Assembly (NCBI GenBank): GCA_030247885.1
Contig: JAPDRO010000006.1
Coordinates: 620,001-684,000 of the forward strand
Direction of reading: 5' to 3'
Source: Taxawa tesnikishii (nom. ined.)
Lineage: Eukaryota; Ascomycota; Dothideomycetes; Dothideales
Length of the DNA: 64,000 nucleotides
In this document: positions 9,014 to 63,615 of the stretch, piece after piece
Layout of the letters: every line of letters begins with the position of its first letter
Position numbering within the stretch: position 1 is the first letter of the stretch
The notes under the pieces: model-generated
Database searches by the model: none
The model's input: only the letters and a program-made list of their open reading frames with translations
What the model was told of the DNA's origin: nothing
Made by a program: the position numbers and the translations under genes

Positions 9014-12000
9014 CTACGCGCCGTCGCCGACAACGCGAGCGATGTTGTCGATGGTGTCCACGACTTCCTCCGCCATGGCAGCAAGAGGGTTCGGGAAAGA
9101 GGAGGGGACCATGGAACCGGAAGAGCCTGGACGGTCGGTACCACGGGAAGAAGGACGGGCAGATCCAGCGCGCGTAGATGCACGAACAGAACCGGCACGG
9201 GAGGAGGCGCGTACAGAGGGAGCACGAGAGCCAGCGCGTGCGCTGCCGCGTGAAGCGGGGCGAGAAGAGGCACGCGCGGAGGGGGCAGCGGAGCCGGCAC
9301 GCGACCTGACCTTGTTGGCGTCTTGCAGCAGGACAGGCGGTTCTGTAGGGACAATGATAGAGTCAGGAGCAGCGTCAACGGCCGGGGCCTTGCTGGCCCC
9401 ACGGGAGACGGCACGCACAGCGCTCCCGAGGATGCTCTCCGCGGCGGACTCGATGGAAGCCAGAATACCGCTTGGACGTCCGACAATGCCAGATGGAGCA
9501 GCGACCTCTGTGCTTGGGATCGGCGCAGCATCTCCCACGATGCTGTCCATGAGGCCGGCCAGACCACTGCTGCTGCCCTCATCTTGGGCAGCGCCCTTGG
9601 CACCTACATCCTCATGTGGAGCCTCTGCATTATGCTGGGGAATCTTGCTAGCCAGACCGGAAAGATGAGAGACATCTCCAGTCTCCAGAGCTACGGTCTG
9701 CGCCTCGTCGATGCTGTCGGGAGGATTGAAGGCCGCAGCGAAGTCGTCAATGGCTGCTCCGCCAGATGCGCCAGCATCACCAGTCTCACCGTCTTCCTCA
9801 ACAAGCTCGTTCAGGACGAACTTCCACTCAGCGGGGAGACTTTACAGACGCTCAGGCGGGACTGCTTGAGAAGCTCCATGTTCGCCAGAGCTTCGCCGGA
9901 CTTGCCGTACTGCTGGAGGTCTTTAAGCGCAACCTTGTTGGGGAACTTGCGAACGAACTTGACGTGGACGAGCTGCCACTTGGGATTCTTGGGGTTGGAC
10001 TTGGCATCGTAGTACGGGCTGGACTTGTCGAACGCAGTGGGGTCCGTGGAGACCTCCTGAACAATCTGCATGATTCCGACAATGCCTGGGACCTTGGTGT
10101 TCGACTCGTAGAAGAAAGCGTAGTCACCGACCTTCATCTCGCGCATGTTCTTCTGGGCCTGGTTGTTGCGGATTCCTAGGTCGGTCGTTAGTCAAGGATA
10201 CTCAACAAGTAACGAAAGAAGTCACTCACCCTCCCATGGTTCTGGCTCGGCCTTGGAGCGCAAGTCGTCGATCGTGAACTTCACATCCACCTGAGTTCCG
10301 TTAGCTGTCTGCTCGAGACGAGACTCCGGCTCGGCCTTCATGAGCCAGTAGTCGCGATGCGCGTCGGTGTCGAGTTCATCGGGGACCTCGGTCGTTGCTT
10401 CAGTCGGGTTAGTTGGGCCAGAGTCGTCAACGCCGTCTTCCTCAGCTACTGCAGTAAGCTTCGTCTTCTTGCCCTTGCTAGCTGCAGCAGTAGCCTTACG
10501 CTTGCGTCCAGCAGTAGGGACAGCGAGAAGGGCGTCGTCAACATCCTCAGTCATCTCAGTGTCACGCTGAGCGTCAGTCTCGGCTTCAGTGTCCTTGGTC
10601 GCCTTCTTTCCACGAGCTTGACGCTTTGGGGCCGGGGCATCTTCGCCGTCAGTCACGACAGTATCGTCTTCGACTTTACGAGCTGGTCGACCGCGCTTCT
10701 TGGGAGTAATCTTGACTTCTACCTTCGGCGTAGCGGCAGCGGCATTCTTAGCACCTCGACCGCGACGGAGGGCAGCAGGTTGGGTGTCGACATCAGTGTC
10801 TGGCTCCACCGTGACCTTGCCCTTTCTCTTGTTCCGCTTGTCCGTAGCTGGCGCTGGCTCGTCCTCGCGCTCCTCGACTGGTTCTTCTGTCTTAGCTTTC
10901 TTCGCAGGACGACCACGCTTCTTAGGTGTAGCGGCTTCGGTAGCGACGGGAGGTTTGGCGTCTTCATCCGGTTGAGGCTCTGGCTCAGCATGGCCTTTGC
11001 CCTTGGGACGGCCACGCTTCTTGGGAGTAGGAGCCAGCTCGACAGGAGGTCCAGCCTCCAGCTCAAGATCTGGCTGAGCAGCAGCTTTGCCTTTAGCACG
11101 ACCACGCTTGCCAGTGGCAACAGGAGCCTCTTCGGCGGTAGGCTCTGGTTCAGGTACAGCCTTCGCGTTCTTGTTTCCCCACGAGTCTTCCTGGCGGTGC
11201 CAGACTGTGGCTCAGGCTCAAACTCGACCTCGTTTTCGGTCTCAGTGGCAGCCTTGCCTCGTCCACGTCCACGAGCCTTAGGAGGTGGAAGATCCTCAGT
11301 AGCAGACTGGTCAATATCCTCGACGGGCTCAGCAGTCGCTGCGGCTTTTCCCTTGCCACGCTTCTTTGTCTTAGACTCCTCTGAGGCTGGCTCTGGCTCG
11401 GGGGCGGCGGCCTTGTTAGAGCGAGTCGTGCGTGTGGTGGCTGGAGTTGGTACAGGCTCCACCTCCTCAGTGTTCCTGACGGTAACGGCAGCCTTAGGCT
11501 GTCTACCACGCTTCTTTGATGCTGGTGTCTCGACCGGCTCCGGTTCGGTGGTAGTGGTCACGTTTCTGGTCGATCTTCCGCGACGAGCACCTGGTTGGGG
11601 TTCTTCAACGGCAGTATCCTCGACTGGCACCTTGCCATGACGGCCACGCTTTGCAACAGGCGCATCTGCGACAGTCTTTTCCTCCTCTTCAGCGGCGTTT
11701 TCGAGGGCTGTTGCGGTGTTCTGAGCAGTGGCTTTGCCTGGACGGCCACGCTTCTTAGGCTCAACCTTCTGCGGCTCGACCGTCTCTGGTTGCATGAGCT
11801 CTTCGGCAGCCTCTTCAATGACTTCGTCCGCTTTGGCACGCGCAGGACGGCCTCTCTTCTTGGGCGCCAGCGCGGTTGGCGCGTCGGCAGCCGTGGCTTG
11901 GGCTTTGGTTGTGGTAGTTGTCTTTGCTTTCTTTGACGATGACTGCTCAGCAGCAGATGAAGCAGCAACGCCGCGCTTGGAGCGAGTGGAAGCGGCAGTG

Positions 12001-12101
12001 TCTTCGATAGTCTTGCCGCGAGGAGTGGTGATCGCAGGCGGCTCAGACGAAGGAGTTACGGCTCTGGCAGGCGCGGGCGCCTTGCGCCTCTTCGGAGGCA
12101 T
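9014..12101 (-). CDS. AT-hook-array protein with EVE (THYN1/DUF55) domain; two frameshifts in this sequence
   Basis: Likely nuclear chromatin protein. Exon 1 is 12101-10230 and exon 2 is 10175-9014; about 1011 aa if the frameshifts are read through. The N-terminal roughly 575 residues are a Lys/Pro/Glu/Ala-rich linker with at least five RGRP AT-hooks (such as PKKRGRPARAK, PKKRGRPGK, PKKRGRPKGK) and several degenerate ones. The EVE domain follows: DYWLMKAEPES, PWEGIRNNQAQKNM across the intron, DYAFFYESNTKVPGIVGIM, NPKWQLVHVKFVRKF and LLKQSRLSVCKVSP. EVE domains belong to the PUA/YTH fold that binds modified bases. A Ser/Arg/Ala repeat tail (RASSRPASRGSARAGS) closes the protein. The frame breaks at 11177-11180 (C4) and 9833-9836 (G4); one extra base in each restores conserved sequence and an exon total divisible by three. 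Whether these are sequencing errors or mutations cannot be decided here. Confidence 0.85.
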
Positions 12102-17897: not shown

Positions 17898-18926
17898 TTA
17901 AACCTCCTCAGCAGCCCTGGCCTCGGTGTTGTCGACCTTCTCGCGCATCTCGCGGCCCTTGTCGGACCATGGGAAGTGAGCGACAGGAATGACGAAGAAA
18001 GAGTTGGAGCTGTCGGCAATACCGGCCAGGGCGTTGTACCAGGCCAGGAAGGCGGCAAGGATGCCGAAAGCGCCACCAGCACGGATGCAGCCGGTGTTGG
18101 GGGCGGCGGTCGCGCCAGAGCTGTGGGTCAGGTAACCGATACCGAGGAGCAGGAAGGCGAGGTCGAGGGTGAGGAAGAGCAGGAAGAAGGCGACGGTGGA
18201 ACGGAGAGTACAGAGCAGGAGCAGGAAGGTGAAGATGAACCAGCCCTGTTAGTGGCATTGTTAGCGAGTGTGCGGAAAACTGGCAAGTAGAGGGTTTGCT
18301 CACCATCAGGAAGAGACCGAAGGAGTCGAGGAAGGGGGCTGGAGAATCGGCTTCAAGCGCGCTCACGATACCAAAACCACCTGGAGTAAGGATGATGGCG
18401 AAGGAAATCCAGAAACCACCGTAGGACGAGAGCGCAGTAGCACCAAAGGTGTTGCCGACCGCCATTTCCCTGTTCGAGCGGCGTTAGCCCATCCGTTCCT
18501 CTTCCATCGGTAGTTGCAACGACTGTCTCCGACTCACCACATGCCGGCAAGGAGCTGGACAAGACCACCGTAAGCGTAAGCAGCAGCGACGACCAAGTTC
18601 GGCTCGCCAATGTTGCGGGTACCCAAGTTGATGCAGGACAGGACGAAAGTGGTCAGGGCGAAAGCGCTGAGACCGAGAGGGGCAGGGTTGGCGAACTTGC
18701 GCTCGGCAATGGACTTGTAGGCACCGGGCTGGAATTCACCACCGAAGGCAGGAAGACGGACAGAGTCGCCGGTGTTGACGTGGGCGAGTGGGTTTCCGCC
18801 GTAGTCGTACGGCTTGCGCTGCTTGGGGGCCCTGGCATGGTCCATGGAGTTGACGCCGTTGGCGCCGTGCTTCTCAGCCATCGTGGAGGCCGAGTTCAAG
18901 TCGTTCTGTTCCTGAGCGGTGGCCAT
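17898..18926 (-). CDS. GPR1/FUN34/YaaH-family acetate/ammonium transporter (Ato-like)
   Basis: Six-helix plasma-membrane protein of the AceTr family (yeast Ady2/Ato1 type), which moves acetate by proton symport and is linked to ammonia export. Three exons: 18926-18538, 18469-18304, 18245-17898; 300 aa, open throughout. The family signature NPAPLGLSAFALTTFVLSCI opens helix 1. Other hallmarks are the Tyr/Gly-rich AYAYGGLVQLLAGMWEM across intron 1, GNTFGATALSSYGGFWIS, and FLAWYNALAGI before the last helix. The C-terminus (FPWSDKGREMREK) is conserved in fungal members. The polar N-terminal tail of about 80 residues is cytosolic. A TATA-like element lies about 190 bp upstream. Such genes are usually induced by acetate and repressed by glucose; nothing in the sequence proves it here. 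Confidence 0.92.
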
Positions 18927-19111: not shown

Positions 19112-19119
19112 AATATATA
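19112..19119 (-). promoter_or_regulatory. TATA-like element of the Ato-like gene
   Basis: Reads tatatatt on the minus strand, about 186-193 bp upstream of the ATG at 18926. The position is long for a TATA box relative to a start codon but acceptable with a 5' UTR. No other start region competes nearby. Confidence 0.4.
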
Positions 19120-27061: not shown

Positions 27062-28749
27062 TCAAGTCTGAGTAACGCCGTACCAGATCACACCCATCGC
27101 GCCGCCAAGCAAAATAGCCAAAGGCGCATTGAGACCAAACCACCTCTGAGTCACGAAACTCGTGGCCGTGACGGCGACGAACCAAGGATCGCTTCCCAGT
27201 GGACTGCCGTTCTCGTGTTCGGCATCAATGAATCCAATCTGCCACAGCCGGAAAACCGCCGTGTACACCAAACCGACCGCCATCGCGTTGACTCCGCGCA
27301 GGAGAGACGTCAGCCATCGCCGTGACCGCAGTTCCTTCCATACACCCATAGTCCCAGAGACAATAGCAAGACCGGGAATGAAGATGGCGAGATAACCGAT
27401 CAGTGCACCGACAGCAGATGGCAAAGGTGTACCCACAGTAGCAAGCGAGCCTAGGTAGACAGCGAAGTTGAAATTTGGTCCTGGGAAGGCTTGTATAACA
27501 GCAAGCCCGAGAAGGAAGTTCCGTGGCGAGACCCAGCCTTCGGCTACGACGTATTCTCGCAGCAAGGGAACCACAACCGGTCCGCCGCCGAAAATGATAG
27601 TGCCCGCGAGATACAGGTTCGCGAGGAGGGAGAAGCCGCGTGGAGGGCTGAAGAGCACACCCCGAAGTACCACGACCGCAATGAAGCTGACTAGGAAGCA
27701 AGTTATGATAGCAATTCCGCCCTTCCAAGTACAGACCTTGATCTCGAGAGACGAAGGTACCACTCTAGCATCAGACTCTTCGCGCAATTCGGCCTCGGCT
27801 GTAGGCAGTGTCACGTTGCTGTTGTTGGCACTTCGACGTCCTTGGATATCGCTTCCACTTTGTACGGCCTCGCCAGCGCTTGGAACCTTGGTTCGCATTT
27901 CGATAGCATCGCTGCCTTCTAGATCGACGTCTGCGTGCTCACGGGGATGGGTGTCTTCTCTTCTCCACAGAAATCTCGCTGCCATGTGCAGCCATCTGAA
28001 ATCCCAGATCACAGTGGCCAAACCTGCGGCAACCACCAGGACTGGAAAGTACCACAATGCTGTGTACAGGATCCCAGCGGCTCCCCAAGAAAGACAAGGA
28101 TTCGCGTCAACCTGTCCGTGATTGCCTTTTCTGCAAGTTGCACAGCAGCAAGCGCTATAATGCCAACGGTTGCAGCGTTGAGACCGGAGAGCAGAGCGTA
28201 GGCCGGTGCAGGAAGCGCACTTTCAGCGCGCTCTATGCCCAAGGATAGGCCGTACATGCCAAGGGCACCGGGCAGACTGCGGACTGAGTTCAGGGCAGGA
28301 AAGAGTAATCCGCGGAAGCGAGGCTCACCTCCACAGCAAGAAAGCAACAAAGCCGGACAGAAAGCCACCATGGATAGAATTGATACAGAATAGCATTTTG
28401 GTGCTAGCCGGTCCGGGAGTGGCCTGGCATATGCCGAAAAGTTCCTGGTACTGAGATACCGTTATCTTTGTAATCGGTCTATGAGACCAATAGCGCTCAC
28501 CATTTGCTCGTCAATCCATCTAAGGTCTTGCACAAATTTCTTGTGAAACTGGAGAGGTCAGCCACGTAAAAGTCTTCGGCTCCAATCAAGTGTTCCTACG
28601 ATCTGGAAATGCACAGGAGGTCCACCAAATGCCGTAACTCCCTGGTGCCAATTTGCAGTGATGACCGCGCTCCATTTGTCCCGTATCTTCGATGGATCGA
28701 AGAGCCTTCCCAACATATGGTGAAGAGACGCCGGCAACACTCCAGTCAT
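27062..28749 (-). CDS. Chromate ion transporter (CHR family); one frameshift in this sequence
   Basis: Plasma-membrane transporter of the two-domain CHR family, which exports chromate, probably by exchange with sulfate-type anions. Four exons: 28749-28600, 28548-28501, 28450-28329, 28276-27062; about 511 aa once the frameshift is allowed for. The first CHR domain shows FGGPPVHFQIFHKKFV, WIDEQM, YQELFGICQATPGPASTKM and LPGALGMYGLSLG. The second shows GTIIFGGGPVVVPLLREYVV, FLLGLAVIQAFPGPNFNFAVYLG and GYLAIFIPGLAI. A polar cytosolic linker of about 90 residues joins them. The frame breaks at C4, 28083-28086; one more base gives LGGAAGILYTALWYFPV, which is conserved. The ATG at 28749 is chosen because upstream codons lack Met; the true start could lie in another exon. 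Confidence 0.88.
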
Positions 28750-29811: not shown

Positions 29812-32800
29812 ATGGTGGGCTTGCCGTCTGCTGCTGGCCTTGTTGGCTTCCTTTCCGAGCCGGATCACGCGCTTCAAGTCTTCGCCCTTGAGCGCCTGAA
29901 CGAGGAGATTGACGACATATGGACTGAGGTCTCAGGATCCATCGGACAAATGTACGTTTAAGAGCTGTCTGCATCTGGGGAGGGGCATCGGCGCGTTCGG
30001 AGAAGAAGGAGCTCGTATGTGAGAAACAGAAAAGCTGACAATCCTGGGTCGGACAGTGAGGCTTTGTATGAAGATGAATCTTTTCCGAACAGAGAACTTG
30101 CTGCGCTTGTAGCTGCAAAGGTCTATTACCAGCTACAGGAGTACGACGAAAGTATGGTCTTTGCGCTTGGCGCAGGCAAGCTCTTCAACCTTGATCAGCC
30201 CGGCGAGTTTGAGGATACTATTGTCGGTAAGTAGACCAAACACCTAGCGCGCTACCTCTGTGTTCAGGAGCTGATACCCTGATGCAGCAAAATGCGTCGA
30301 CACATACATCGCTCTTTCCGCTATGCATAACCCACCAGTCCCTGCGAGTTCGGCAAATCACCCTGCAACGCAGCTAGGGAGGCTTTCCCAAGCAACGCCA
30401 ACGGCAGCACTAACCCTGCAGGCGCGAACACCTCTCCAACCACTCCTTTCTCACAGTCTTCGCTTCCGTCGAAGTCTCTTCTGTCTCGCGAAGACAGCTC
30501 GGTCTGGGACGCGAACCAGCCAGGAGGTGGTAACGCAGGAGTGGCCGGAGCGCACCCTACACCGTTGACCCTTGCTCGCCAGACCCAAAAGAACCTTCAA
30601 GCTATTGTCAAGCGCATCTTCGAGAACTGCTACAGAGCCGGCGCTTATCGGCAAGTGGTTGGAATTGCAGTGGAAGCACGCAACAAAGACGTGCTGAGGG
30701 AAGCTATTTTGCGGTCAAGCCAGGACGAGAAGTCCAAGGGCAAGAATGCCGCTCCCGGCGGCGCAAGCCAGACGGAAGAGCTCATGGAGTACGTCTTGGA
30801 CATCTGCATGAACGTGGTTCAAGAAAGAGGCTTGCGCAACCAGGTAAGTAGCATGCGTTTGCTAAATACGACTTGTGACTGACAGTCATTCGAAGATCCT
30901 ACAACTCATTCTTGAGCTTTTGAACGATATCCCAAGCCCCGACTACTTCGCCATTGCCAAGTGCGTGGTATATCTTGGCCAGCACTCGATGGCATCGGAC
31001 ATGCTACGACAACTCGTGCAAAAGGGAGATGGGAAATCACTCGCCATCGCTTACCAACTATCTTTTGATTTGTACGACAACGGTACTCAGGAGTTTTTGA
31101 ACAAGGTCATGGAAGAGCTTCCTGAGGCCGATGGGGAGCAGAAGGGTGACGCGCCGCACGCAAATGGCGACGCCGTCCGCCCATCCACACCACACCCAGG
31201 CAACGGAGAGGAGTCTTCGGAGTCGGACCAGCTGTTGTCGGAGCTAGAAAGAAGCGCCGGAGCACCCACAACAGCAACTATAAGAACGAAGCATAAACCG
31301 GAGTCGGAAGAAGAGAACAAGGCCTTTACTGCAATCAGGGAGATTCTGCGTGGCACCAAGAGCATTGAGCTGAACCTGGAGTTCCTTTTCCGGAACAGCC
31401 ATACGGACAAGAACGTTCTCAACAAGATACGGGACAGCCTGGAAGCCCGCAACTCTATCTTCCACACAGCTGTCACCTTTGCTAACGCCTTCATGAATTC
31501 GGGCACTACTGTGGACACGTTCTTCAGGGACAACCTCGAGTGGCTTGGCAAGGCAGTTAACTGGTCCAAGTTCAGCGCGACAGCCGCATTGGGTGTCATT
31601 CACAGAGGAAACCTCAGCCAGGGACGCAAACTTCTCGACCCATACCTGCCGAAAGACAACCCAGGTACCGGATCCACTTATAGTCAGGGTGGCTCGCTTT
31701 ACGCTCTGGGTCTGATCTATACCAACCACGGCCACCACGTCCTGGACTATCTCATGGACAGATTTAGAAACACCCAGGAGGAGGTCGTGCTGCACGGTGG
31801 TGCCCTCGGCCTGGGTGTGGCGGGTATGGCGACCGGTTCCGAGGATATCTACGAAAAGCTGAAGGATGTCCTGTACCAGGACTCAGCAATTAACGGTGAG
31901 GCTGTCGGTTTGTCAATGGGTCTCGTCATGCTTGGCACTGGTAACATCAAGGCACTCGAAGACATGGTTACATACGCCCACGACACTCAGCACGAGAAGA
32001 TCGTACGCGGTCTTGCTATGGGGATGGCACTCATCATGTACGCTCGCCAGGAAGCTGCCGACGAAATGATCAACAGTTTGCTGGATGAGGCAGACCCTGC
32101 GCTGAGATACGGTGGTATCATGACCGTGGCACTCGCCTACGCTGGCAGTGGCAGCAACAAGGCAGTTAGGAAGTTGCTCCACGTTGCTGTGAGTGACGTC
32201 AGCGACGATGTCCGCCGTGCTGCCGTGATGAGTTTGGGTTTCGTTCTCTTCCGCAAGCCAGGAAGTGTTCCTCGGATGGTCGAACTGCTTTCCGAATCTT
32301 ACAACCCTCACGTGCGGTACGGCGCTACCATGGCTCTCGGTATCGCTTGCGCGGGTACTGGTCTGGATGAGGCCATCGACCTTCTGGAGCCAATGATGAA
32401 GGACTCTGTCGACTTTGTGCGCCAAGGTGCGCTCATTGCGCTGTCCATGATCATGGTTCAGCAAAACGAGGCTATGAGCCCTAAGGTTGGCAGCATCCGG
32501 AAGACTCTACAGAAGATCATCGGAGACCGGCATGAGGATGCTATGTGCAAGTTCGGTTGTGCTCTTGCTCTTGGCATCATCGACGCCGGTGGTCGGAACT
32601 GCACTATCAGCCTGCAGACACAAACAGGCAACCTCAACATGCCTGGAATCGTCGGAACGGCCGTTTTCATTCAGTATTGGTACTGGTTCCCCCTCACTCA
32701 CTTCCTTTCTCTTGCATTTACCCCAACCGCCATCATCGGTGTTGACCAGGACCTGGAGATTCCATCTTTCAAGTTCCACAGCAACACCCGTCCTAGCATG

Positions 32801-33536
32801 TTCGACTACCCTCCAGAGCAGCAGGTGAAGGCCGAGGAGGCGCCTGAGAAAGTCAAGACTGCTGTGCTTAGCACAACAGCTCATGCAAGGCGAAGAGAGC
32901 AGGCCAAGAAGCGGCAAGCACGGAGGGAAAGCATGGATATCGACGCCACACCTACAACACCCAAGGTCGACACAGCGGGCGAGAGTGACAAGATGGAGAC
33001 CGACGAAAACGTCATCGATACCAGCAAGGTGGTCGATGACAAGGACAAGGAGCCTGCTGAAGGCAGCACTAAGAAGAAGATCGAGAAGGAGAGGGTCGGC
33101 TATGACTTGGAGAACATGAGCCGTGTCCTGCCGGCACAAATCAAGTACATCAGCTTTTCGCAGGACGGCCGCTACCAGCCGGTAAAGAAGGTGAGTCACT
33201 TTCACATATGTTCATTACAATATGTCTAGATTTGTACTAACGTATCCTCAGCCTACCGGTGGCGTTATCCTCCTTCACGACACCCAACCTTCTGAAGAGA
33301 AGTCCCTTCTTGATCTTAAGGTCAAGAAGAAGGCTGCGGCGGCCCCAGCTCCAGTGCCCGGCCAGACGACCGGCGCGCCATTCACGCCCGCCCGTCAAAT
33401 GGACATCGATATGAGCGGCACCGAAGCCGCAGCGGGCGTGCTCAACGCGGTGGACGAAGACATCGAAGGTGGCGAGGAGGCCGAGGTGCCCGACGAGTTC
33501 GAGGTCGAGAGTGAGGACGAGGCACGCGAGGAGTAG
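29812..33536 (+). CDS. RPN2: 26S proteasome regulatory subunit RPN2 (PSMD1); one frameshift in this sequence
   Basis: Largest non-ATPase subunit of the 19S proteasome base; it scaffolds the lid and docks Rpn13. Exons: 29812-29951, 30057-30226, 30288-30843, 30896-33190, 33252-33536; about 1148 aa. Conserved landmarks are the N-terminus GLVGFLSEPDHALQVFALER, then VAAKVYYQLQEYDES and VAKCVDTYIALS. The proteasome/cyclosome repeats form the toroid (GGALGLGVAGMATG, GEAVGLSMGLVMLGTG, VRGLAMGMALIMY, YGGIMTVALAYAGSG, RRAAVMSLGFVLF). The end is PTGGVILLHDTQPSEEK with an acidic tail, where Rpn13 binds in other species. Low-complexity insertions flank 30330-30540 and 32820-33080. The frame breaks at C3, 30331-30333, in a variable linker; one more base restores the frame and an exon total divisible by three. 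Confidence 0.95.
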
Positions 33537-37445: not shown

Positions 37446-40404
37446 TTATCTGTCCAGCCTTTGCTTGATAATTTTGAGCAGATCCGACACAATGAATGGC
37501 TTCGAAAAGACGGCATCAATGCCCACCGCCATAGCATGGTCAACCTGTTCCTTTCTCGCATTTGCCGTAACGGCAATGATCTCGATGTGTTTCGTTAACT
37601 GTCCCGATCGTTGGAGCATTCTAATCTCTTTACTGGCTGTCAAGCCGTCCATTACAGGCATTTCCCAATCCATGAGGATAATGTCAAGATGTTTACCTGT
37701 CGTGGCTTGGTCTTTCCAACAGGATGTGGTTTGTAGGAAATTCAGGGCTTCGGCGCCATTGTCGGCTGTATAGACTATGCAACCGGCTTTGATGAGCTGT
37801 TTTTTCAGAATGCGTTGATTCACCAGATTGTCCTCGACCAGGAGGATGTGGTATGATTGCGATAGGGCATGTACGGGTGTCCGTATCACCGAATCTGTTG
37901 TATGGGCAGTCGGTATATCAGCCTCTGCTACCCGCGCTCTCATTCTCTTGGTTTCACGTTCGACTTCCTCTTCCGCGGGACGGAGTACCACCGATGGCAT
38001 GCCGGGCTGAATGACTTTTCTTCGGACTTTGATGTAGAACGCAAAGGTGGTGCCCTGACCTACTTGCGAAGAGACGCCAATGTTGCCGTTGTGTTTCTCG
38101 GACAAAGAATGCGAGATGTATAATCCGAGCCCGGAGCCTCCGTATTTGATTGACGTCTTCAAGCCCGCTTGTTCAAACCTATTGAAGAGGCGGCGGAGTT
38201 CTTCTGCACTCATCCCTGGTCCGGTATCCCGGATGGAGAAGGTAAGATATACAACCTCACCGTTGCCCCACTCTCCGCCCTGCGCCAAGTCGTCCTGGTG
38301 CTCGCGCTTGGACGATGCCCATACCATATCTTTAGGGAAGGCTTGCCGCGGTTTTGATGTCGACGCACCATATCGTATAGCAATCTCTCGTCGGTACTCG
38401 CGTTTCGTGAACTTGATGGCGTTGGACAGAAGGTTGATTAATATTTGCGTGACACGAAGGGAATCGCACAAAACCCATGTGACATTCAAGTCGCTTAACG
38501 AAGGTTCTGAAAAGACAGAAAGGTCTATCTTACCACTGGAAAGGTCGGCTTCGAGGAGCTTCAATGCTTCGGTGACGAGATCAGACGGTCGAACGGGAGT
38601 AGGTGAGAGTGACATGAGTGCAAAATCCAGCTTGGACAGAACCAAGACGTCGTCGACAATGCGCTTTTGATGCTGAGCACATTTCAAAATTATTTTCGCA
38701 GCTTCGGCATTTTCGGAGAGTAATTGCATGCAGCTTTCTGGGTCAAGTCCATCCGTTGCATCGTGACTTAGCGAGTCGATGATGCCGTCGGCGAGTTGGA
38801 AGATTGCGGAAAGCGGATTTCTGACTTCGTGCGAGATGATGTCAGTGAACTCGCTTTGCTGTCGTTTTGCCTCCTGCGCTTCTCGCGCTGCTCGCGCCTG
38901 CCAGGACTCTGCCCATTTCAAGTGGCTCACGTCTGTCATACAAGCCATGATGGATTTGACTGAGCCGTTCTCGAAGTAAGGGAACGCAGACAAAAGTACC
39001 GTCTTCGGTATTGGGCCGCCTGATGGGGGAAGATAGAGAGCTTTGAACCGGACCTCCACAGAAAATGACGCTATGCCTTCACGGACACGGTCCCAGGCCT
39101 CCAAAACCTTAGGCACGTCTTCTTCCAGAAGTTGTTTGCTGAACGACAACCTGATGCGCTCCTGTTCGTCCTTGGAGTGGCCAACGAGATTGTAGTATGC
39201 TTCGTTGGCCCATATTATTTTACCTTCCATGTCCAGATGCTCCATGCCAACATCAAGATGCTGAGCCATGTACCGAATGTGTCGCTCACTTTCGATCAAC
39301 TGATCCTGAAGCCTTTGCTCCCTCAGGATCGTCTCTTCAGAACTGACGGTGACCGCTATGGTGGACGAGATCTGCTTCGAAAGATCCTGCATGAACTGCG
39401 CATGGTCCTCGTCAATTGGCCTTCGAGGATTGGCTCCAACGACCAGAAAGCCAAAAGCCGACCAGCGTTGCTGAGAGGAATAGCGCTGACGAATTTTGAT
39501 GGTTCGCCCCAGCCAACCCATTCCACTCCGGCAAAGTTGTCTCCGACAGGGACCGTGACAACTTCTGTGTAAGCTTTGGTCAGGAGCGGAATGAGACCGT
39601 GTTCAGAATCAAGATAGGCCTCTCGAACAGCGAGCTGGTGGTTAGAAGGCACGCCAATGGACTCCCAAAGGGTGACACGAGAGTGGCTCGAACTAGGCCC
39701 CTCATGCAGCTGGTAGAGAAGCGCGACAGGAACGTCAAAGGAGTTCGTTCGCAGGGCCTCGATGATGTGTGTGCCAATAGTGGAAAGTGTGTATGACTGC
39801 GTGGGTGCGGAGACAAGATTCAGCATAGTCCTTCTCCTGTCGATCAGCTTTTCCCGAGTAACTTCATGGGGCGCGTTGTAGAAGCCGCCAACCCTGCCAC
39901 CTTCTTTCCGGATCGGAGTGATGTTTCCCACAAAATAACTCTCTTCAAGGATACCGTTCCGCTCAAGGAACAGCAACGTTCCTTCCGATCCAAAATTCAT
40001 AGCCTTTTTGGTCGTTTCGGCTGCATCGAACATGGGTAATACTTGATGGGCAACCTCTGGAAAGCCTTCGGCGAATGTCGAGCCCATCAGCGAAGGATGT
40101 AGCTTGCCAGCCATGGGAATGTAGGCTTCGTTATAGAGGTAAACTCTGTGAGGGCCCCTATACTGTCAGTGCCGGCCTTCAGACTGAGGGATAAGAAGTA
40201 CCAGAAGACAGCGGCAGGCCGCGAGTCGGCCATTAGCTGGTAGACGTAGAGGCGCAGAGGGAAACTCCATGTCTGGAGAGGACCAAGGTGAGTCTTGGAC
40301 CAGTCGACAGATCTAAAGAAGCGGACATGGTCGCTGTCAACGATGTCTTGTGTCCAGTCATCAACGATCTCGCGCGTGTCGTACTCGGCAGGTGCGGGGT
40401 CCAT
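37446..40404 (-). CDS. Hybrid sensor histidine kinase; one frameshift in this sequence
   Basis: Fungal two-component hybrid kinase that would feed the HPt/response-regulator relay for stress or environmental signals. Exon 1 is 40404-40202 and exon 2 is 40157-37446; about 971 aa. An N-terminal PAS-like region (KTHLGPLQTWSFPLRLYVYQ, then WGPHRVYLYNEAYIPMAG across the intron) is followed by a GAF-like part, and a second PAS (GKIIWANEAYYNLVGHS) at about residue 380. HisKA has the phospho-acceptor His (about residue 511) in IISHEVRNPLSAI. The ATPase has the N box LLSNAIKFTKREY, the G1 box DTGPGMS and the G2 box GGSGLGLYIS. The REC domain has ILLVEDNLVNQRIL and the phospho-Asp (about residue 898) in ILMDWEMPVMDG. 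No transmembrane helices are visible, so it is probably cytosolic. The frame breaks at A3, 39447-39449, between the GAF-like and second PAS regions; one more base repairs it. Confidence 0.92.
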
Positions 40405-51570: not shown

Positions 51571-52789
51571 ATGGCCACTGTCGCAACAGCAAGCCCTCCA
51601 TCTTTGGAGCATGGAGAGGCTCGCGCTGCCGCTCAGGCGTACTTGAAATCCAGGCTGACCGCCAAAAACAGTGCCTCAGAACGGGCCTTCAACATTCCGG
51701 TCATTGATATTTCTCCTTCGTTCTCTTCCTCCTTGAAGACCGCAAGGCCGTAGCCGTACAGATTCGAGATGCTTGCGAGAACAGTGGGTGAGTTTCCAAC
51801 ACGTAAGCGCAATCGATATCTTATTCATTTACAACGGCTTCTTTCAGATCACCGGTCATGGCGTCCCAGCGGAGTCTCGCGCAGCTGTTTTGAAGCAAGC
51901 TGAGCGCTTCTTCAAGCTGACAGTAGACAAAAAGGACGCTTTACACATCAAGCATTCGAAGTACATGCGCGGGTGGGAGCCATCGGACGCTTCATACGTA
52001 AACCCCGCCGACTGGACCGACGCAGAAAGTGTGCCAGAAACCAAGGAAGGATTCAACTGGGCTTATGAAGAAGCTCTGGACCTGACTGGAGGCGACGGTC
52101 AATACGCTGAGCTTGACGGAGCCATGGTCAACGGAAACGTTTGGCCAGCCGAGGAGGATCTGCCCGGATTCTTCGAGGGCATCAAAAACTACTACAGCAA
52201 AGTCATGGAGCTGGCACGTCACATGTTCCGTCTGTTCGCATTGTCGTTGGATCTTCCTGAAGACTACTTCGACCCAATGATGACGCATCCGGGTGCCATC
52301 GCGCGTCTGATGTACTACCCACCTTCCAAGGATCCCAAGCCACTGGATCCGAACGAGAAGGACAAGGAGGTTGGACTCGGCGCTCACAGCGATTATGAAT
52401 GTTTCACGCTGTTGCTGTGCTCCTCTCCTACAGGCCTTGAGGTACTTTCTCCGGACAACGTGTGGACTCCGGCGACGGCCGTCGAGGGAAGCTTCATCGT
52501 AAATGTTGCGGACTTTCTGATGCGTTGGACCAATGATCGCTACAAGAGCACTGTCCACCGTGTCGTTAACAGGACCACGGAGACACGTTACAGTGTACCC
52601 TTTTTCTTCAGTATCAACTATGACCAGGTTGTGGAGGTGAGGCGTTGTTGTCCAAAAAAAACGTTCCTTTTCTGACTTGTACAGACGCTTCCGAGCTGCG
52701 TTTCGCCAGAGAATCCCTCAAAGTACCCAAAGATCAAGGCCGGGGAGTATATCCTGCAGCGCCTCCTCGCCACGCTGAAAGAAGATTGA
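51571..52789 (+). CDS. 2-oxoglutarate/Fe(II)-dependent oxygenase (isopenicillin N synthase-like); one frameshift
   Basis: Cytosolic non-heme iron dioxygenase of the IPNS-like (DIOX_N plus 2OG-FeII_Oxy) family; substrate unknown. Exons: 51571-51787, about 51838-52636, 52685-52789. The N-domain has FNIPVIDISPSF and GFFQITGHGVPAESR. The core has RLMYYPPSKDP and the iron ligands HSD (in GLGAHSDYECFTLLL) and His (in STVHRVVNR), with the 2OG-binding arginine in RYSVPFFF. The C-terminus is PKIKAGEYILQRL. The frame breaks at AA, 51736-51737; one more base gives SLKDRKAVAVQIRDACENSGFF. The first intron has a clear GTGAGT donor at 51788, but the base before the conserved Gly-Phe-Phe follows ACGG rather than AG, so its 3' end is uncertain. 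ATG 51571 is the only ATG in frame. It converges on the FAD oxidase gene, 257 bp away. Confidence 0.85.
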
Positions 52790-53046: not shown

Positions 53047-54455
53047 CTATAGCTTAGATGAGCTGGCACCAATACCGACATCTCTCAAATCCTTGACTTC
53101 GTCTCCTGGCCGCGTCGGATCGCGCTTCCATGGTCGGTTTGTCCACTTCCACACATCTTTGCAGCCTCTCTCCTTGCCCTCGAATGCATCAGTTATGTAA
53201 CTTCCAATGATTGGCAAGAACTTGAAAGAGTGGCCGCTATCTCCAGTTGCGAGCAACAGCTCTCCGCCTGGATATGACGAATGCCTATCAATCAGCAGAT
53301 GCGCATCAGGACTGTCTGTGCACCAGCAGATCCTCGCTCCGTGCAACGGCCGGCCGGAGAATTGTGGAATTACAGCATCAACGAATCGGTTGATAGCAAC
53401 CAGCGCTTCCTCAGGAGCCCCATCCTCTGGATAATCGCTGGCATACCGAGGTATCGAGTATTTTGTCATGTTGCCGTCCTTGTCTGTATACTCGCCCTTC
53501 CTGTACTGATAGCCTGGGAACGCGTTGCAGATCTTCATCCACCGCGTGACGGGGTCGGCTTCGAAGAAGAAACCCAATTCGTGGTTATCCACGACCGGCA
53601 TGTCTTTAAACTGAGCAACTTCTTCGTCGGTTAGCTCCAGATGCGCCAGTGTCCAGCACTTCGACCACAGCTGGGGGCTGAGCTCGGGCAAAACAGCGGG
53701 ACTGGCGGCGCCTGTGCACAGGATATACCGGTCGGCCCTTTGCACCTTTCCAGACGCGACTTTGATGCCAATCACCTTGTCGCCAGACGTCTCCAAACCT
53801 GTCATGGTTCCGTCCGGCCCTGAAACAAACTTCACACCTAACTTCTGAGCTTCAGTGCCCATCTTTTCCAGCGCATTCCTGGCATGCGCCCAGCCAGCCT
53901 GCTTGTTCCACAGGCCCTTCCAGTTTGCCAAACCCTTGGCATTCGCCAATTGAGGCACATAGCGCGCGATTTCGTCTTTTCCTTCTACGAAATCAATGTT
54001 CGCGGCCTGACCTGCTTTCTTGAGGTTCTCGTACGATTTCCGCAAGTGCTCGGCCGCCTCTGGCTCGCCACAGGTCGTTACAATCCACCCGGTTTCGTGG
54101 TAGATGCCGTCCCACATGGGCTCGCGCCACGCTCGTACGGCTTCCAGCGCCATGTCTGCGTAGAGAGGTTCATCATATTCTGTTCGGATGATCTTGTTGA
54201 GATCGTATGCTGCGCTGTCTACACTAGGGCCTTGATGGCGTTCAGTTATGGCTTCGCTGCCCCAAGAGCACCATGGGACTTACATGGGTTCTTGTCAATG
54301 CATGTAATGTTTGTGTAACCTCTCTTAGCGAGGTGGTAAGCTGTGCTGGAGCCAAATGTACCACTGCAAGGAGGTCAGATATTATGCGATCTCTCCCCAC
54401 CAATACATGCGTCTACGCACGCTCCGATGATCAAGATTGAAGAATTCTTGTCCAT
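53047..54455 (-). CDS. Fructosyl amino acid oxidase (amadoriase, FAD-dependent)
   Basis: Oxidises fructosyl amino acids (Amadori products) to glucosone, free amino acid and hydrogen peroxide; usually peroxisomal. Three exons: 54455-54421, 54363-54284, 54230-53047; 432 aa, open with no correction. The FAD-binding motif is IGAGTFGSSTAYHLAKRGY (residues about 10-28), with its codons split by intron 1. Then come PSVDSAAYDLNKIIRTEYDE, the amadoriase hallmark, and ILCTGAASPAVLP. RICWCTDSPDAHLLID contains the cysteine candidates for covalent FAD attachment, and GDSGHSFKFLPIIGSYI is the C-terminal FAD loop. The C-terminus ASSSKL ends in SKL, a clear type 1 peroxisomal targeting signal. Family and location are therefore well supported. 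Confidence 0.92.
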
Positions 54456-56645: not shown

Positions 56646-59600
56646 ATGAGGACTCGGTTAGGTCTGTTAACAGGCCTCTTCCTGCTCGGGCTGTCCTCCG
56701 TTACCGCAAAGAAGGACAAGCCCGAGATCGAGGAGACGGCCTTCAAGGCGCTACCTGCGAACCTATTCTATTTCGAGGACAGCGATGTCGTTCTCTTGCA
56801 GGAAGGTGCACCGGGCGCGGTATACAGATCCGAAGACGCGGGCGAGTCGTGGAAGACTGTCAGGGAGATCCCCGCGGAGGAGGCAGTAGAGGTTTTGAGG
56901 CATCCGTTCAACGACAAGGTGGCGATCACCATAGGCTTGGAGAAGAAGCATTGGATCACAAAGGATCAGGGAAGACATGGAGCAGCTTCGAGACAAAGTT
57001 CAACCCGGTCATGGGAAGAAGTCCCATCAGCTGGCATGCCACGGACCCCGACCGCATCATCTACATGGGCGCCGACTGCAGGGGCTGGGAGTGCGAGACG
57101 AAAGTGAGCAAGACGTCTCGCGAATTCAGGGCAGGATAGCTGATGATTTCCTAGGCGTACTACACCACGGACGGTTTTGACACGATCGATCTCCTCCATG
57201 AGAAGGCCATCTCCTGCATATGGGCAAAGGGACAGCCAATGTTCACCACTGGCGACGACAAGAAAGACAAGAACGAGATTCTCTGCATTGTGGAAGGCAA
57301 ATACTCGCCATGGACCAAGGACTACCGCGTTCTGATCACAGACGATTACTTCGAAAAGCACGAGATCGAGCCGGAAATGGCAGAGGGACGGACGGTGCCA
57401 GGTATCGTCAACATGGCTGCCGTCAAGGGATACATCGCAGTCGCAGCAAAATCTGAGGGCACTAGCGAACTGGCTATGTACGTGACGAACGATGCAACGA
57501 GATGGCACCGCGCGGAGTTTGGAGAGCACAAGCTCGAACAAGATGCCTACACCGTCTTGGAATCCACCAACTACAGCATGCAAGTCGATGTCATGACCAC
57601 GGCTGGCGTCACTGAACCGATGGGCGTCCTCTTCACCAGCAACTCCAACGGCACGTACTTCACGGAAAAAATCAGGCATACCAATCGCAACTTCCACGGT
57701 TTCGTGGATTTCGAGAAGATCCAGAACATCCAGGGCATTGTGCTGATCAACACGGTTGAAAACTGGGAAGAGGTGGAGCGTTCGTGGACCGCTTCCAAGA
57801 AGGTCCAGACAAGCATCAGTTTTGACGACGGTCGGACGTGGCAGCCACTGAAGGTGGGCAAGGACGACCTGCATCTCCATTCTGTCACCGATCAGCGTAA
57901 CACTGGCCGGATCTTCTCCAGCCCGGCTCCGGGTATTGTGATGGGTATTGGGAACACTGGAAAGTCGCTCGATGACTTCTCAAAGGGCGATACGTACGTC
58001 TCGGACGATGCTGGTTTGACGTGGAGGCGAGCGCTGAAGAAGCCGCACTTGTACGAGATCGGTGACCAAGGCGCCGTTTTGGTCGCCATCGAGGATGGAG
58101 AAACAGACGAGATCAAGTGGAGCATCAACCATGGCAAAGACTGGGATTCGATTAGCTTGGAGGACAAAGTTTCACCACTTTCTTTGACCACTACTCCGGA
58201 CTCGACCAGCTTGAAGTTCATCCTCACAGCGACCAAGGGTAAGGGTTCCAAGACTGGCTACTTCACCTACTCTATCAATTTTGAGGGTTTGCACGAGCGC
58301 AAGTGCGGAGACAAAGATTTTGAAAGATGGGCTGCTCGTGCGGACGAAGACGGCAAGGCAACATGCTTGATGGGTCACACCCAGTTCTACCGCAGACGCA
58401 GGGCAGACGCAGACTGCTTTGTCGATGAGGAGTTCAAAGACCCTCAACCCGAATTTGAGGACTGCAAGTGCACGGACGCCGATTACGAGTGCGACTACAA
58501 CTTTGTTCGAAGCGAAGATGGCAAGGAATGCGTACCGTCGGGCACGTTGGAGGCTCCAAAGGATCAGTGCAAAGAGGCTGAGGACACCTACGAAGGCAGC
58601 TCTGGCTATCGACTCATCCCCGGAAACACTTGCATCAAGAAGGGTGGTGTGGTCAAGGATGAGCCGGTGAAGCGACCTTGCAAGGACACTCTAAAGAAGC
58701 CAGCGACCGGGAAGGTGTCCAGCGAGATCACCAATTTCAAAGGAAGTACCTTCAAGGAGTACTACTACCTGGAGCGCGCGGAATCTGCCAGAGGAGATGA
58801 CGAGACGATCATCATGCGTACTGACAGGCGCGAGACCTGGATTACACGTGATCATGGCAAAACCTGGCACGAAGCCGTCCCTGATGACGAGATTGTTGCT
58901 ATCTATCCTCACCAGTACTTCAACGACATCGTGTATCTGATTACAGCATCGAAGAGGGTGTACTACTCCAAGAACCGCGGTCAGAGCATCCACCACTTTG
59001 ACGCCCCTGAAGCGCCGAATCAAGATCGACTGCAGATTCTCGGCTTCCACCCTCATGAGCAAGACTGGCTGTTGTGGACTGGTGGGAAAGATTGCGGAGG
59101 CTTTGGCACTGATTGCCACTCCGTTGCACACGTATCCAGGAAGGGTGGAGAGGAGTGGGAGACTCTTCTTCCATTCGTGCGAAAATGTCAGTTCATCTCT
59201 AGGGAAGGTCGCAAAGACAGCGGACAGTTGGTGTACTGCGAGCAATACCAGGACGAAGACCCAGCAAACCCGCTCCAGCTCATCTCCAGTGACGACTGGT
59301 TCCAGCACAAGAAGGTTCACTTTGACGATGTTATCAACTTCGCCACCATGTCCGAGTTCATCATTGTTGCATTGAGAGACAAGGATCAGAAGTCTTTGCG
59401 CGTCGACACCAGCATTGACGGATCCACTTTCGCCAACGCCATGTTCCCACACAACTTCAATGTGCCGCACCAGCAGGCGTACACTGTGCTTGACAGCTCC
59501 ACTCACGCAGTGTTCCTGCATGTCACCGTCAACAACAGGGAAGAGCAGGAGTACGGTACCATCGTCAAGTCGAACAGTAACGGCACCTCTTATGTTCTGA

Positions 59601-61189
59601 GCATCGGCCAGGTCAACCGCAACACCCCTGGCTACGTCGACTTCGAGAAGATGCAGGGTCTTGAGGGTGTAGCTGTTGTCAACATGGTTACGAACGTCAA
59701 GGAGGTTGATGGGGGTGCTGTGAAGAAGCTGCGCACCTTGATCACGCACAACGACGGAGCTGAGTGGGGCTACATAACGCCCCCGGAGAAGGACTCGGAC
59801 GGAAAGTCATACAACTGCAATGGCGGCTCTTTGGAGGAGTGCGCCCTGCACTTGCACGGATACACTGAACGCAAGGACCCACGCGACACCTTCTCCTCGC
59901 CTTCTGCTGTAGGCTTGATGATGGGTGTCGGAAACGTTGGTTCCTACCTTGGCCAGTACAAGGAGGGCGACACCTTTATCACGAGAGACGGCGGTGTCAC
60001 TTGGCACGAGGTCTTCAAGGGTACCTACATGTGGGAATATGGAGACCAGGGCTCCATTATCGTTATCGTCAAGGAAGACACTCCCGTCAACAGCGTCTTC
60101 TATACCACAGACGAGGGCAAGACATGGACAGAATACCAGTTCAGCGAGCAGAAGATGCTCATTGACGACATCTCCACCGTACCCTCAGACACTTCTCGCA
60201 ACTTCCTCCTCTGGGGCCGCGACGGCAGCGGCAAAGGTGGCCTTGTGACCATCAACCTAGACTTCGCTGGTCTTACAGATCGCGCGTGCCATCTTAACGA
60301 AGACGATCCCGAGGCATCAGACAGTGACTACTACCTCTGGGAGCCAAAGCATCCTCTGTCCGACTCCAACTGCCTCTTCGGCCATGTGGCACAATACCAC
60401 CGCAAGAAGCTAGAGAGTGAGTGTTACAACGGGCGTCAAATCGACCACTTGCACAACATCGCACGGAACTGCACTTGCACCCGGCAGGACTTCGAATGGT
60501 ATGTTGTCAACATTACTCTCCTTTCATGCATAAACCAAAAGCTAACAAGTCACAGTGATTACAATTACGAACGCCAGAACGATGGCTCGTGCAAGCTTGT
60601 CCCCGGTCTCACCGCCGCGGACCCCATGGCAATCTGCAAGGCAGACCCCAACGCCATCGAATACTACGACCCCACAGGCTACCGTCGCATCCCACTTACC
60701 ACCTGCCAGGGAGGCAAGGAGATGGACTTCACGTCTCAATCTCACCCTTGTCCCGGCCGCGAAGAGCAGTACGAGGAGAAGCACGGCATCAGCGGCGTCG
60801 GGCTCTTCTTCGCGATTGTCATCCCTGTCGCAGCGGCCGCCGGCGCTGGCTATTGGGTCTGGAAGAATTGGGATGGCAAGTTCGGCCGCATCAGACTGGG
60901 TGACTCGATGAGTGGCGTGGGCGGAGGCTTCGATGCTGATGCGCCGTGGGTCAGGTGGCCGGTTGCCGCCGTCAGTGGTCTCGTTGCTGTGCTGGCTGCG
61001 CTGCCCATGGTGGCGGGCAGCATCTGGCGCACGGTTAGCAGCAAGTTTGGACGCCCTGGTGGAGGGTATGCGAGGCCATATACTAGCCGCAGCTCGTTCC
61101 AGCGTGGAAGAGGCGATTACGTTGGCGTGGACACGGATGAAGGGGAGTTGCTGGGTGAGGACGATGACGACGCTTTTGAGGAAGCGTAG
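56646..61189 (+). CDS. VPS10: Vacuolar protein sorting receptor VPS10 (sortilin family); one frameshift in this sequence
   Basis: Type I membrane receptor cycling between late Golgi and endosome, sorting carboxypeptidase Y and other vacuolar hydrolases. Exons: 56646-57103, 57155-60498, 60556-61189; about 1478 aa. Signal peptide RLGLLTGLFLLGLSSVTA. Two tandem Vps10 domains (about residues 30-670 and 690-1300), each with Asp-box/BNR turns (SEDAGESWKTV, SFDDGRTWQPL, TRDHGKTWHEA, TTDEGKTWTEY) and a Cys-rich 10CC end (CKCTDADYECDYNF; CTCTRQDFECDYNYERQ across intron 2). Transmembrane helix GLFFAIVIPVAAAAGAGYWVW, then a cytosolic tail with a second apolar stretch and an acidic end (EGELLGEDDDDAFEEA). 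The frame breaks at G3, 56969-56971; one more base yields KDQGKTWSSFETKFNP. Intron 2 is 57 nt and stop-free, so it is hidden inside one long open frame. Confidence 0.95.
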
Positions 61190-61520: not shown

Positions 61521-63615
61521 ATGTTGGCCAAAGCATTTCTCTCTTGCGCCCGCCGCTCTTCCTCCCGCTCTCCCTCCTGCTCGCCCTTTTCAATTGCTCC
61601 CCTCAGGCCTGTCAGTTATCTGGAGCTATACCAACCCTCACGTGCTGCTCCCTACTCCAACACCTTTGTCAGAACGATGGCGTCTCTACCGCGTACTGCG
61701 CTCTTCGAGGCCATATCCAAGCATGACCCTCAGAGTACGGCCGTGATTCACTCGCTTTCCGGCAGGACTTTCACCTACGGCTCGCTGTTGAAAGACGTAG
61801 CGGCTGCTAAGCAAAGGCTGGCCCAGAACGCTGGGAAAGACGAGAAAGATATGCGGGGCGAGAGGATTGCCTTCTTGGTGGAGAACAGCTACGACTATGT
61901 GGGTGCGCGCATGTCCATATCACTGTACTGCTTGACGGTCACAGGCCGGCACAGGACATATGCTGACGGAACGGCTGCTGCGCAGTGACTCTACTTTCCA
62001 TACTCGGTAGCAATGCGATTGCGGTCCCACTGTCGCCAGGCTTCCCACCTCACGAGTTGAGTTACATCCTCGACCAGTCTGGAGCTCTGATGCTGCTCTC
62101 CTCCGCCAAGTTCTCAGCCAAGGCCGAGGAGGTCTTGAAGGAGGAGCTGGAGCAGAAGCCTATACATGCCAAAGTTGAGAAAATTGCGGAAGGCAAGACG
62201 GAGGGCGAGAATCCAAAGCTTGAGGACGTTGCGCAAGAAGACGACAAGGGCGGCATGATGCTCTACACGAGCGGGACGACCAACAGGCCGGTGAGAAAGC
62301 GATGAGGTATGCGTTGGAGCAGACTGTTTGAATTGACCATCTCCCAGAAAGGCGTACTCCTCCCTCAATCCGTCTTGACCGCACAATCTCAGTCACTGTA
62401 CCAAGCCTGGCACTACACACCTTCCGATCACCTCCTGCACGTCCTGCCTCTGCACCACATCCACGGCACCGTCAATGCGATCCTCACGCCGTTGCTCGCG
62501 GGCAGCACAATCGAATTCATGTTCCCCTTCACGGTAGACGCCGTGTTCAACCGTTTCGCCGCGCCGTTCCTCCGATCGAACGGCTCCTCCAAGAAGGCGC
62601 CCATCACCTTCTTCACCGTCGTCCCCACCATCTACAAGCGGTTGCAGGATGGCCACAAATCGCTTTCGCCAGAGATGCGAGAGGCAACACGCACAGCATT
62701 CAAGCCCGAGAACTTGCGTCTGAACATCTCTGGCTCGGCGGCACTGCCGACGCCGACAAAGATGGCGTGGGCGGAGTTGAGCGGTGGAAATATCCTGCTC
62801 GAGCGCTACGGCATGACGGAGGTGGGCATGGCGTTGAGCTGCGGGCTGGCGAACGAAGACCGCGTCGACGGCAGCGTTGGCTGGCCCTTGCCCAGCGTAA
62901 CGGCACGGCTGGTGGATTCCGACACGCACGAGGTGATCGAGCCGGGCCAGGAACTGGACAAGGACGGCAAGGAGCGGCACGGCGAGATCCAACTCAAAGG
63001 CCCGACCATCTTCCGCGAGTACTGGCGCAACCCGACCGCCACGGCGTCCGAGTTCACGCCCGACGGCTTCTTCAAAACGGGCGATGTGGCCGTGCGTCGC
63101 GCTGTCGAGGGCGCGGGCACCGGCGCGTCCGGCTCCTGGGCCAAGGGACCCATGTACTTCATCCAAGGGCGCAAGAGCGCCGACATCATCAAGACGGGCG
63201 GCGAAAGGTCTCCGCGCTCGAAGTCGAGCGCGAGATGCTATCCCTGCCGCAGATCTCCGAATGCGCCGTCGTGGGCCTTCCCTCGGAGACGTGGGGCCAG
63301 AAGGTCGCCGCCGTCGTCGTCCTCTCCTCCGAAGGCCAAACCGGCGGTCGCGGCGGCAAGCCCTACGGCGCAATGGACCTGCGGCGCGCGCTCAAGGACC
63401 GTCTCGTCGCGTACAAGATCCCACAGGACATGAAGGTCGTCGAGAGCATTCCGAGGAACGCGATGGGTAAGATCAACAAGAAGAATCTGGTCAAGGAGGT
63501 CTTCGGTGAGTTGGAGAGCATCAGGAGGAGGAGTGTGGACTTGGCCGAGGAGAGAAAGAGGCTGAAGGCGGGTGAAGGAGACAGGACGCTCGGAGGGGAA
63601 GTCAAGAGTACTTGA
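61521..63615 (+). CDS. Acyl-CoA synthetase, malonyl-CoA synthetase (ACSF3)-like; one frameshift in this sequence
   Basis: ANL-superfamily ligase making acyl-CoA from acid, ATP and CoA, closest in layout to mitochondrial malonyl/methylmalonyl-CoA synthetase; substrate is inference. Exons: 61521-61902, 61986-62290, 62348-63615; about 651 aa. The N-terminus is Arg/Ser-rich and lacks acidic residues (LAKAFLSCARRSSSRSPSC), a plausible mitochondrial presequence; a second Met (61677, MASLPRTALFEA) gives a form without it. Core motifs are the AMP-binding P-loop MLYTSGTTNRPKGVLLPQ across intron 2, LPLHHIHGTVNAIL, ISGSAALPTP, ERYGMTEVGMALS, FFKTGDVAV, YFIQGRKSADIIKTGGEKVSALEVE, and the C-terminal catalytic Lys in NAMGKINKKNLV. 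The frame breaks at A3, 63204-63206, inside that KTGGEKVSALEVE motif; one more base restores it and the exon total. Confidence 0.9.

What the first reader, a model, noticed from the sequence alone, without database searches (positions are those of the whole stretch)
9833..63206. Eight frameshifts in seven conserved genes, all one base short in a homopolymer
Seen directly: EVE gene (C4 11177-11180 and G4 9833-9836), chromate transporter (C4 28083-28086), RPN2 (C3 30331-30333), histidine kinase (A3 39447-39449), 2OG oxygenase (AA 51736-51737), VPS10 (G3 56969-56971) and acyl-CoA ligase (A3 63204-63206). Every one needs +1, none needs -1. With +1, exon totals divide by three in the six genes whose exons can all be fixed; the 2OG oxygenase is not testable because its intron 1 acceptor is unresolved. 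Family motifs return in each case except RPN2, where the break lies in a variable linker. RPN2 and VPS10 are rarely or never pseudogenes. The one-sided bias suggests homopolymer compression in the reads or consensus rather than mutation. Ab initio annotation would wrongly truncate seven genes.
Basis: partly seen in the sequence, partly recalled or inferred. Interest (0 to 1): 0.7.

Follow-up and report, generated by a model that had tools for sequence, protein, structure and literature searches.

The report
Assembly errors, not broken fungal genes
The broken reading frames are almost certainly sequencing-consensus errors that drop single bases across this whole fungal genome assembly, so the genes are probably intact in the living organism and the finding is a quality warning, not biology.

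Summary
The frame breaks are in the sequence, and where homology can test them they need one extra base. VPS10 and the acyl-CoA ligase are pinned to a few bases by matches in two frames. The second EVE site, histidine kinase and 2OG oxygenase have partial support; chromate transporter and first EVE site are weaker. RPN2 is not established: one in-frame intron removes the need for a break.

To avoid hand-picking, a codon model with symmetric frameshift states was run on the window plus 20 loci of 10 kb. It called 33 missing-base against 4 extra-base breaks in 61 genes, and 16:0 at the strictest setting. Planted deletions and insertions were recovered equally, 278 and 277 of 384. Missing-base calls are enriched at runs of four or more.

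Long runs are depleted: A/T-flanked G/C runs fall 19-fold from length 5 to 6, then 4-fold to 7. The G/C deficit holds in non-coding DNA.

Best reading: systematic single-base loss in a long-read consensus, most like nanopore without short-read polishing. This is well known.

The parts
9014..12101 (-). EVE-domain gene with two frame breaks; first break in 10722-11211 (run named 11177-11180), second in 9814-9841 (run named 9833-9836)
   Evidence: EVE profile match ending at about 9834; both-open intervals; codon model calls at 11191 and 9824, as two model genes
27062..28698 (-). Chromate transporter gene; frame changes between 28111 and 27754 (run named 28083-28086)
   Evidence: Chromate_transp matches in two frames; tblastn with bacterial ChrA; not called by the codon model
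29812..33536 (+). RPN2 proteasome subunit gene; proposed break at 30331-30333 not established, an in-frame intron 30227-30421 would remove it
   Evidence: RPN2_N, PC_rep and RPN2_C matches; PDB chains of PSMD1/RPN2; splice options
37446..40165 (-). Hybrid histidine kinase gene; frame changes in 39359-39602, probably at or before 39458 (run named 39447-39449)
   Evidence: HisKA, HATPase_c, Response_reg; GAF_3 match from 39458; codon model call at 39413
51571..52675 (+). 2OG-Fe(II) oxygenase gene; frame changes in 51708-51750 (run named 51736-51737); first intron acceptor unresolved
   Evidence: 2OG-FeII_Oxy and DIOX_N; weak DIOX_N match in the middle frame; both-open interval of 43 bases; codon model called the contrary sign at 51778
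56646..61189 (+). VPS10/sortilin-type receptor gene; frame changes at 56966-56978 (run named 56969-56971)
   Evidence: Contiguous Sortilin-Vps10 profile match in two frames; codon model call at 56972
61677..63615 (+). Acyl-CoA (malonyl-CoA-like) ligase gene; frame changes at 63202-63220 (run named 63204-63206)
   Evidence: AMP-binding then AMP-binding_C in two frames; PDB alignments; codon model call at 63205

Best explanation
The window belongs to a fungal genome assembly (29.4 Mb, 34 contigs) whose consensus has lost single bases, preferentially but not only in homopolymer runs. In a long-read consensus the length of a run is under-called, so a true run of n is written as n-1; in an exon this shifts the frame and splits the gene. 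Shown here: one-sided single-base loss in loci from 20 other contigs as well as the window, enrichment at runs of four or more, and a sharp fall of G/C runs between lengths 5 and 6, in coding and non-coding DNA. Inferred: that the reads were nanopore of an older pore or base-caller without short-read polishing, and that the living organism has intact genes.
For: Codon model with equal penalties for both signs: 33 missing-base vs 4 extra-base calls in 61 genes, 28 vs 2 outside the window, 16 vs 0 at the strictest penalty (binomial P about 1e-6 for 33 of 37). Control: 278 of 384 random deletions and 277 of 384 random insertions recovered with the right sign. Position mass of the missing-base calls on runs >=4 is 3.74 against 1.25 +- 0.49 for shifted windows (0 of 2000 reach it) and 0.113 against 0.038 per call for random deletions (P 0.0006). 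Whole genome: A/T-flanked G/C runs number 7357, 386, 89 at lengths 5, 6, 7. Coding G/C runs >=6: 0 observed, 27.6 (16-41) in 200 synonymous shuffles; non-coding: 4 observed, 23.9 (17-36) in 20 order-3 simulations. Breaks in about half of the model genes (29 of 61) cannot all be pseudogenes (inference). Published precedent in nanopore-only fungal assemblies (PMC7500977, passages) and for under-calling of runs above 5, or above 4 in human and GC-rich bacteria (PMC8486125, passages).
Against: No reads, RNA-seq or related strain were available. The named runs are short (2-4), where nanopore reads are usually right. Only about 11% of the position mass of the calls lies on runs >=4, partly because localisation is poor, and there is no excess on runs >=5. 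E. coli K-12 also has few G/C runs >=6 (39 of length 5, 6 longer, in 100 kb; coding 5 against 14.6 after shuffling), so part of the deficit is normal. Non-coding A/T runs >=6 (28) lie within the simulated range (26-47). Long runs are not absent: 62 exact A/T runs of 10 in the genome and one C19 in the 264 kb read. Four calls have the contrary sign, and one appeared in an unmodified clean gene when re-tested alone. In Drechmeria, polishing gave more insertions than deletions, so a one-sided deletion bias is not universal.
Confidence: 0.93

Rival explanations
1. Real mutations: the genes are pseudogenes, or the strain is a mutator that shortens runs.
For: The frames are broken as written; a mutator could favour run contraction.
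Against: 29 of 61 model genes, on most of the contigs sampled, would be hit, while codon signal continues on both sides of each call, which is how they were detected. Depletion of G/C runs in non-coding DNA is not expected from gene decay.
Confidence: 0.03
2. Genome-wide programmed -1 ribosomal frameshifting that restores the frame at translation.
For: The sign is uniform at the sites tested and equals a -1 ribosomal step.
Against: An in-frame slippery heptamer lies within 18 nt at 0 of 8 sites. Ribosomes do not act on non-coding DNA, where G/C runs are also depleted.
Confidence: 0.01
3. Missed introns rather than missing bases explain the frame changes.
For: At RPN2 an in-frame 195-base intron with a splice score of 6.2 needs no break. 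At VPS10 a pair scores 2.0.
Against: At the other six sites the best joining GT-AG pair (42-300 nt, near the site) scores 0.5 or less, below all 19 called introns (1.3-6.2); the splice weights were set by hand and those introns were chosen with them, so this comparison is partly circular. At VPS10 and the ligase the matches leave no room for an intron, and the VPS10 pair would remove part of the matched stretch. Introns would not give a 33:4 sign bias.
Confidence: 0.02

Closest known systems
Homopolymer-length errors in nanopore-only fungal assemblies (Drechmeria coniospora, PMC7500977)
   Same: Long contigs, conserved genes split by single-base indels, errors mostly in runs, reading frames altered (passages).
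   Different: There polishing gave more insertions than deletions; here deletions predominate 33 to 4.
Under-calling of runs in MinION reads (PMC8486125)
   Same: Runs mostly right up to length 5 (4 in human and GC-rich bacteria), under-called above, deletions predominating in longer runs (passages).
   Different: That is read level; here only the consensus is seen, and the named sites are runs of 2-4 as written.
R9.4.1 against R10.4 consensus quality (PMC9262707)
   Same: Indels in homopolymers cause frameshifts in gene calls; the gain from R9.4.1 to R10.4 is largely homopolymer calling (passages).
   Different: Bacterial genomes; platform of the present assembly is unknown.

Membership tests
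Systematic deletion error in a long-read consensus | Frame breaks in many unrelated genes across contigs | tested here: met
   29 of 61 model genes in the window and 20 loci have a break call
Systematic deletion error in a long-read consensus | One-sided sign (missing bases) | tested here: met
   33 vs 4, with a symmetric control of 278 and 277 of 384
Systematic deletion error in a long-read consensus | Association with homopolymer runs | tested here: met
   Threefold position mass on runs >=4; no excess on runs >=5
Systematic deletion error in a long-read consensus | Long runs depleted outside genes too | tested here: met
   Non-coding G/C runs >=6: 4 vs 23.9; but A/T 28 vs 38.0, within range
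Systematic deletion error in a long-read consensus | Independent reads show the longer run | not testable with these tools
   No reads on hand
Systematic deletion error in a long-read consensus | Known platform and polishing history | not testable with these tools
Programmed -1 ribosomal frameshifting | In-frame slippery heptamer X XXY YYZ at the shift | tested here: not met
   0 of 8 sites within 18 nt; motif definition recalled
Pseudogenes | Loss of coding constraint after the break | tested here: not met
   Domain matches continue in the next frame at VPS10 and the ligase; codon signal continues at the five window calls
Missed introns | A credible GT-AG pair joins the two frames | tested here: inconclusive
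   Met at RPN2; VPS10 pair excluded by domain match; not met at the other six with hand-set splice weights

The most novel reading that the evidence does not exclude
A fungus that really carries one-base-short runs in about half of its genes and restores the frame at translation or in the transcript (genome-wide -1 frameshifting or base insertion into mRNA). The evidence disfavours this but does not strictly exclude it, as no reads or cDNA were seen.
Probability: 0.01. Interest if true: 0.95.

Novelty: not a real feature. Interest (0 to 1): 0.12.

Why it matters
It warns that gene models from this assembly are unsafe: pseudogene, gene-loss and domain-architecture claims drawn from it would often be false. 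Extrapolating 33 missing-base calls in 264 kb gives about 3,700 such breaks in the genome, or about 5,100 if corrected for 72% recall; both are rough. The sign-of-frameshift test with a symmetric control is a cheap way to flag such assemblies without reads.

Tried and rejected
Programmed -1 frameshifting: an in-frame slippery heptamer was found at 0 of 8 sites; rejected. Introns: rejected at VPS10 and the ligase by domain matches, disfavoured at five other sites, and not rejected at RPN2.

Extra-base calls (4) as counter-evidence: the two in the window gain only 1.4 and 1.5 nats; at 6205 one frame (6085-7092) is open through the call, and 51778 lies where the 2OG intron acceptor is unresolved. 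The one in L021 lies in a glutamate-repeat tract. The one in L011 may be a second missing-base break, because the third frame carries what I recall as the C-terminus of an NST1-like protein (recalled, not tested). None was dropped from the 33:4 count. Four of the 33 missing-base calls lie in a single model gene of L014, which I could not verify.

Organism identity: a 5.8S search of the own genome found nothing; not pursued. Bacterial ChrA did not pin the chromate break. No polished fungal genome was on hand as yardstick, so E. coli was used, which is imperfect. The 42-residue RPN2 piece 30275-30400 matched no solved chain at E up to 10.
Full report
What is there. The window is G000:C31:620001-684000 of a 29.37 Mb assembly in 34 contigs, about 53% GC, with intron-bearing genes and fungal domain families. 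I did not identify the species.

How firm each break is. Frame pieces were searched apart, without mending. VPS10 is the firmest: the Sortilin-Vps10 profile runs 2-56 in one frame and 53-106 in the next, the matches overlapping at 56966-56978. The acyl-CoA ligase is as firm: alignment to malonyl-CoA ligase ends at 63202 and the C-terminal domain starts by 63220 in the other frame. The second EVE break is confined to 28 bases (9814-9841), where the EVE profile match ends at 136 of 145. In the histidine kinase a GAF_3 match (E 0.0055) in the downstream frame begins at 39458, so the break lies at or before that and the run named (39447-39449) is probably not the exact place. The 2OG break has a weak DIOX_N match (E 0.24) in the expected frame, but the codon model called the contrary sign nearby. 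The chromate break lies between 28111 and 27754. The first EVE break lies in low-complexity sequence and rests on codon signal. RPN2 is not established: the donor at 30227 can be joined equally well to 30287, which then needs a break, or to 30421, an in-frame intron of 195 bases that needs none; the codon model took the latter. Human PSMD1 has 23 residues between the two matched stretches (chain 103 to 127), which either reading can fill. A resemblance of the piece after 30287 to PSMD1 is recalled only; the PDB search with it found nothing.

Test of sign without hand-picking. On 264 kb it finds 61 genes with 33 missing-base and 4 extra-base breaks; 29 genes have a break call, 27 of them a missing-base call. 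The window gives 5 and 2, the other 20 loci 28 and 2. Raising the penalty gives 29:3, 22:1 and 16:0; lowering it gives 38:7. Many single calls gain only a few nats. Random single deletions and insertions in 32 unbroken genes are recovered equally, 278 and 277 of 384, with 2 and 1 near the site of the wrong sign; unmodified, the 32 genes gave 0 missing-base and 1 extra-base call. One model gene in L014 carries four of the 33 calls.

Link to runs. The position of each call is spread over 11 to 166 bases (90% span), so runs cannot be read off directly. The position mass on runs of four or more is three times that of shifted windows (3.74 vs 1.25 +- 0.49, 0 of 2000) and of random deletions (0.113 vs 0.038 per call, P 0.0006); on runs of three or more the excess is smaller (0.256 vs 0.167, P 0.003); for runs of five or more there is none (0.43 vs 0.28). 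The control used 264 recovered calls from deletions planted in the clean genes.

Length of runs in the assembly. In 264 kb, G/C runs number 849, 151, 3, 1 at lengths 4 to 7, plus one C19; order-3 simulation gives 772, 147, 26, 3. In the whole genome, A/T-flanked G/C runs number 7357, 386, 89 at lengths 5, 6, 7: a 19-fold fall and then a 4.3-fold one. Exact A/T runs number 3839, 243, 62 at lengths 6, 8, 10. Coding G/C runs >=6 are 0 against 27.6 after synonymous shuffling, A/T 5 against 18.0; non-coding G/C 4 against 23.9, A/T 28 against 38.0, the last within the simulated range (26-47). The yardstick E. coli K-12 shows a milder deficit: coding G/C 5 against 14.6, A/T 51 against 72.7; A/T runs >=6 are 0.16 per kb here and 0.84 per kb there. 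The G/C contrast between the two genomes is modest (Fisher P 0.017). Eukaryotic intergenic DNA is reported to be enriched in poly(dA:dT) (PMC4194402, start of abstract in the search listing), the opposite of what is seen.

Mechanism. A read-level study reports that nanopore runs are mostly right up to length 5 (4 in human and GC-rich bacteria), under-called above that, with deletions predominating as runs grow (PMC8486125, passages). In nanopore-only assemblies of another fungus fewer than one-sixth of 305 conserved genes were full-length before polishing, and short-read polishing corrected run lengths (PMC7500977, passages). The gain from R9.4.1 to R10.4 is largely homopolymer calling (PMC9262707, passages). 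In a study of four filamentous ascomycetes such indels fell with coverage (PMC9453082, passages). The pattern here fits that class; the platform itself is inferred. A point against a simple reading is that in PMC7500977 polishing gave more insertions than deletions.

Rivals. Ribosomal -1 frameshifting: an in-frame slippery heptamer at 0 of 8 sites, and it would not remove long runs from non-coding DNA. Introns: credible at RPN2 only; elsewhere disfavoured, with the caveat that the splice weights were set by hand. Pseudogenes or a mutator: about half of the model genes would be hit.

Verdict. Observation partly confirmed, interpretation supported, scale larger than stated, biology ordinary.

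Noticed in passing
Own genome, contig ends: e.g. C2:934, C3:941, C6:923, C12:920, C34:923 and right ends of C4, C6, C9, C10, C11, C14: Exact T8 or T10 runs recur about 880-965 bases from many contig ends, suggesting a shared subtelomeric element and contigs that reach chromosome ends; copies differ in run length (contig lengths).
   Followed up: no
L002 (own genome C1:100001-110000): A 77% AT, TA-rich stretch that looks like repeat-induced point mutation (recalled signature); even here no A/T run exceeds 6, where a geometric estimate gives about 10 of length 7.
   Followed up: partly
L011:5058-5076: A single run of 19 C, far outside the run spectrum of the 264 kb read; it may be a consensus artefact of the opposite kind.
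   Followed up: no
L011:7400-9791, - strand: A long low-complexity gene that seems to pass through three frames; recalled as NST1-like, which would make two missing-base breaks.
   Followed up: partly
window 51740-51810, + strand: The first intron of the 2OG oxygenase gene has no clear AG acceptor where the coding frame resumes, possibly a second missing base in the same gene.
   Followed up: no
window 17900-54279: Other genes seen: GPR1/FUN34/YaaH 17911-19226 -, methyltransferase 34437-35225 +, GH30 42209-43926 +, two Fungal_trans_2 regulators 47335-48936 - and 49580-50908 +, FAD oxidoreductase 53050-54279 -.
   Followed up: no
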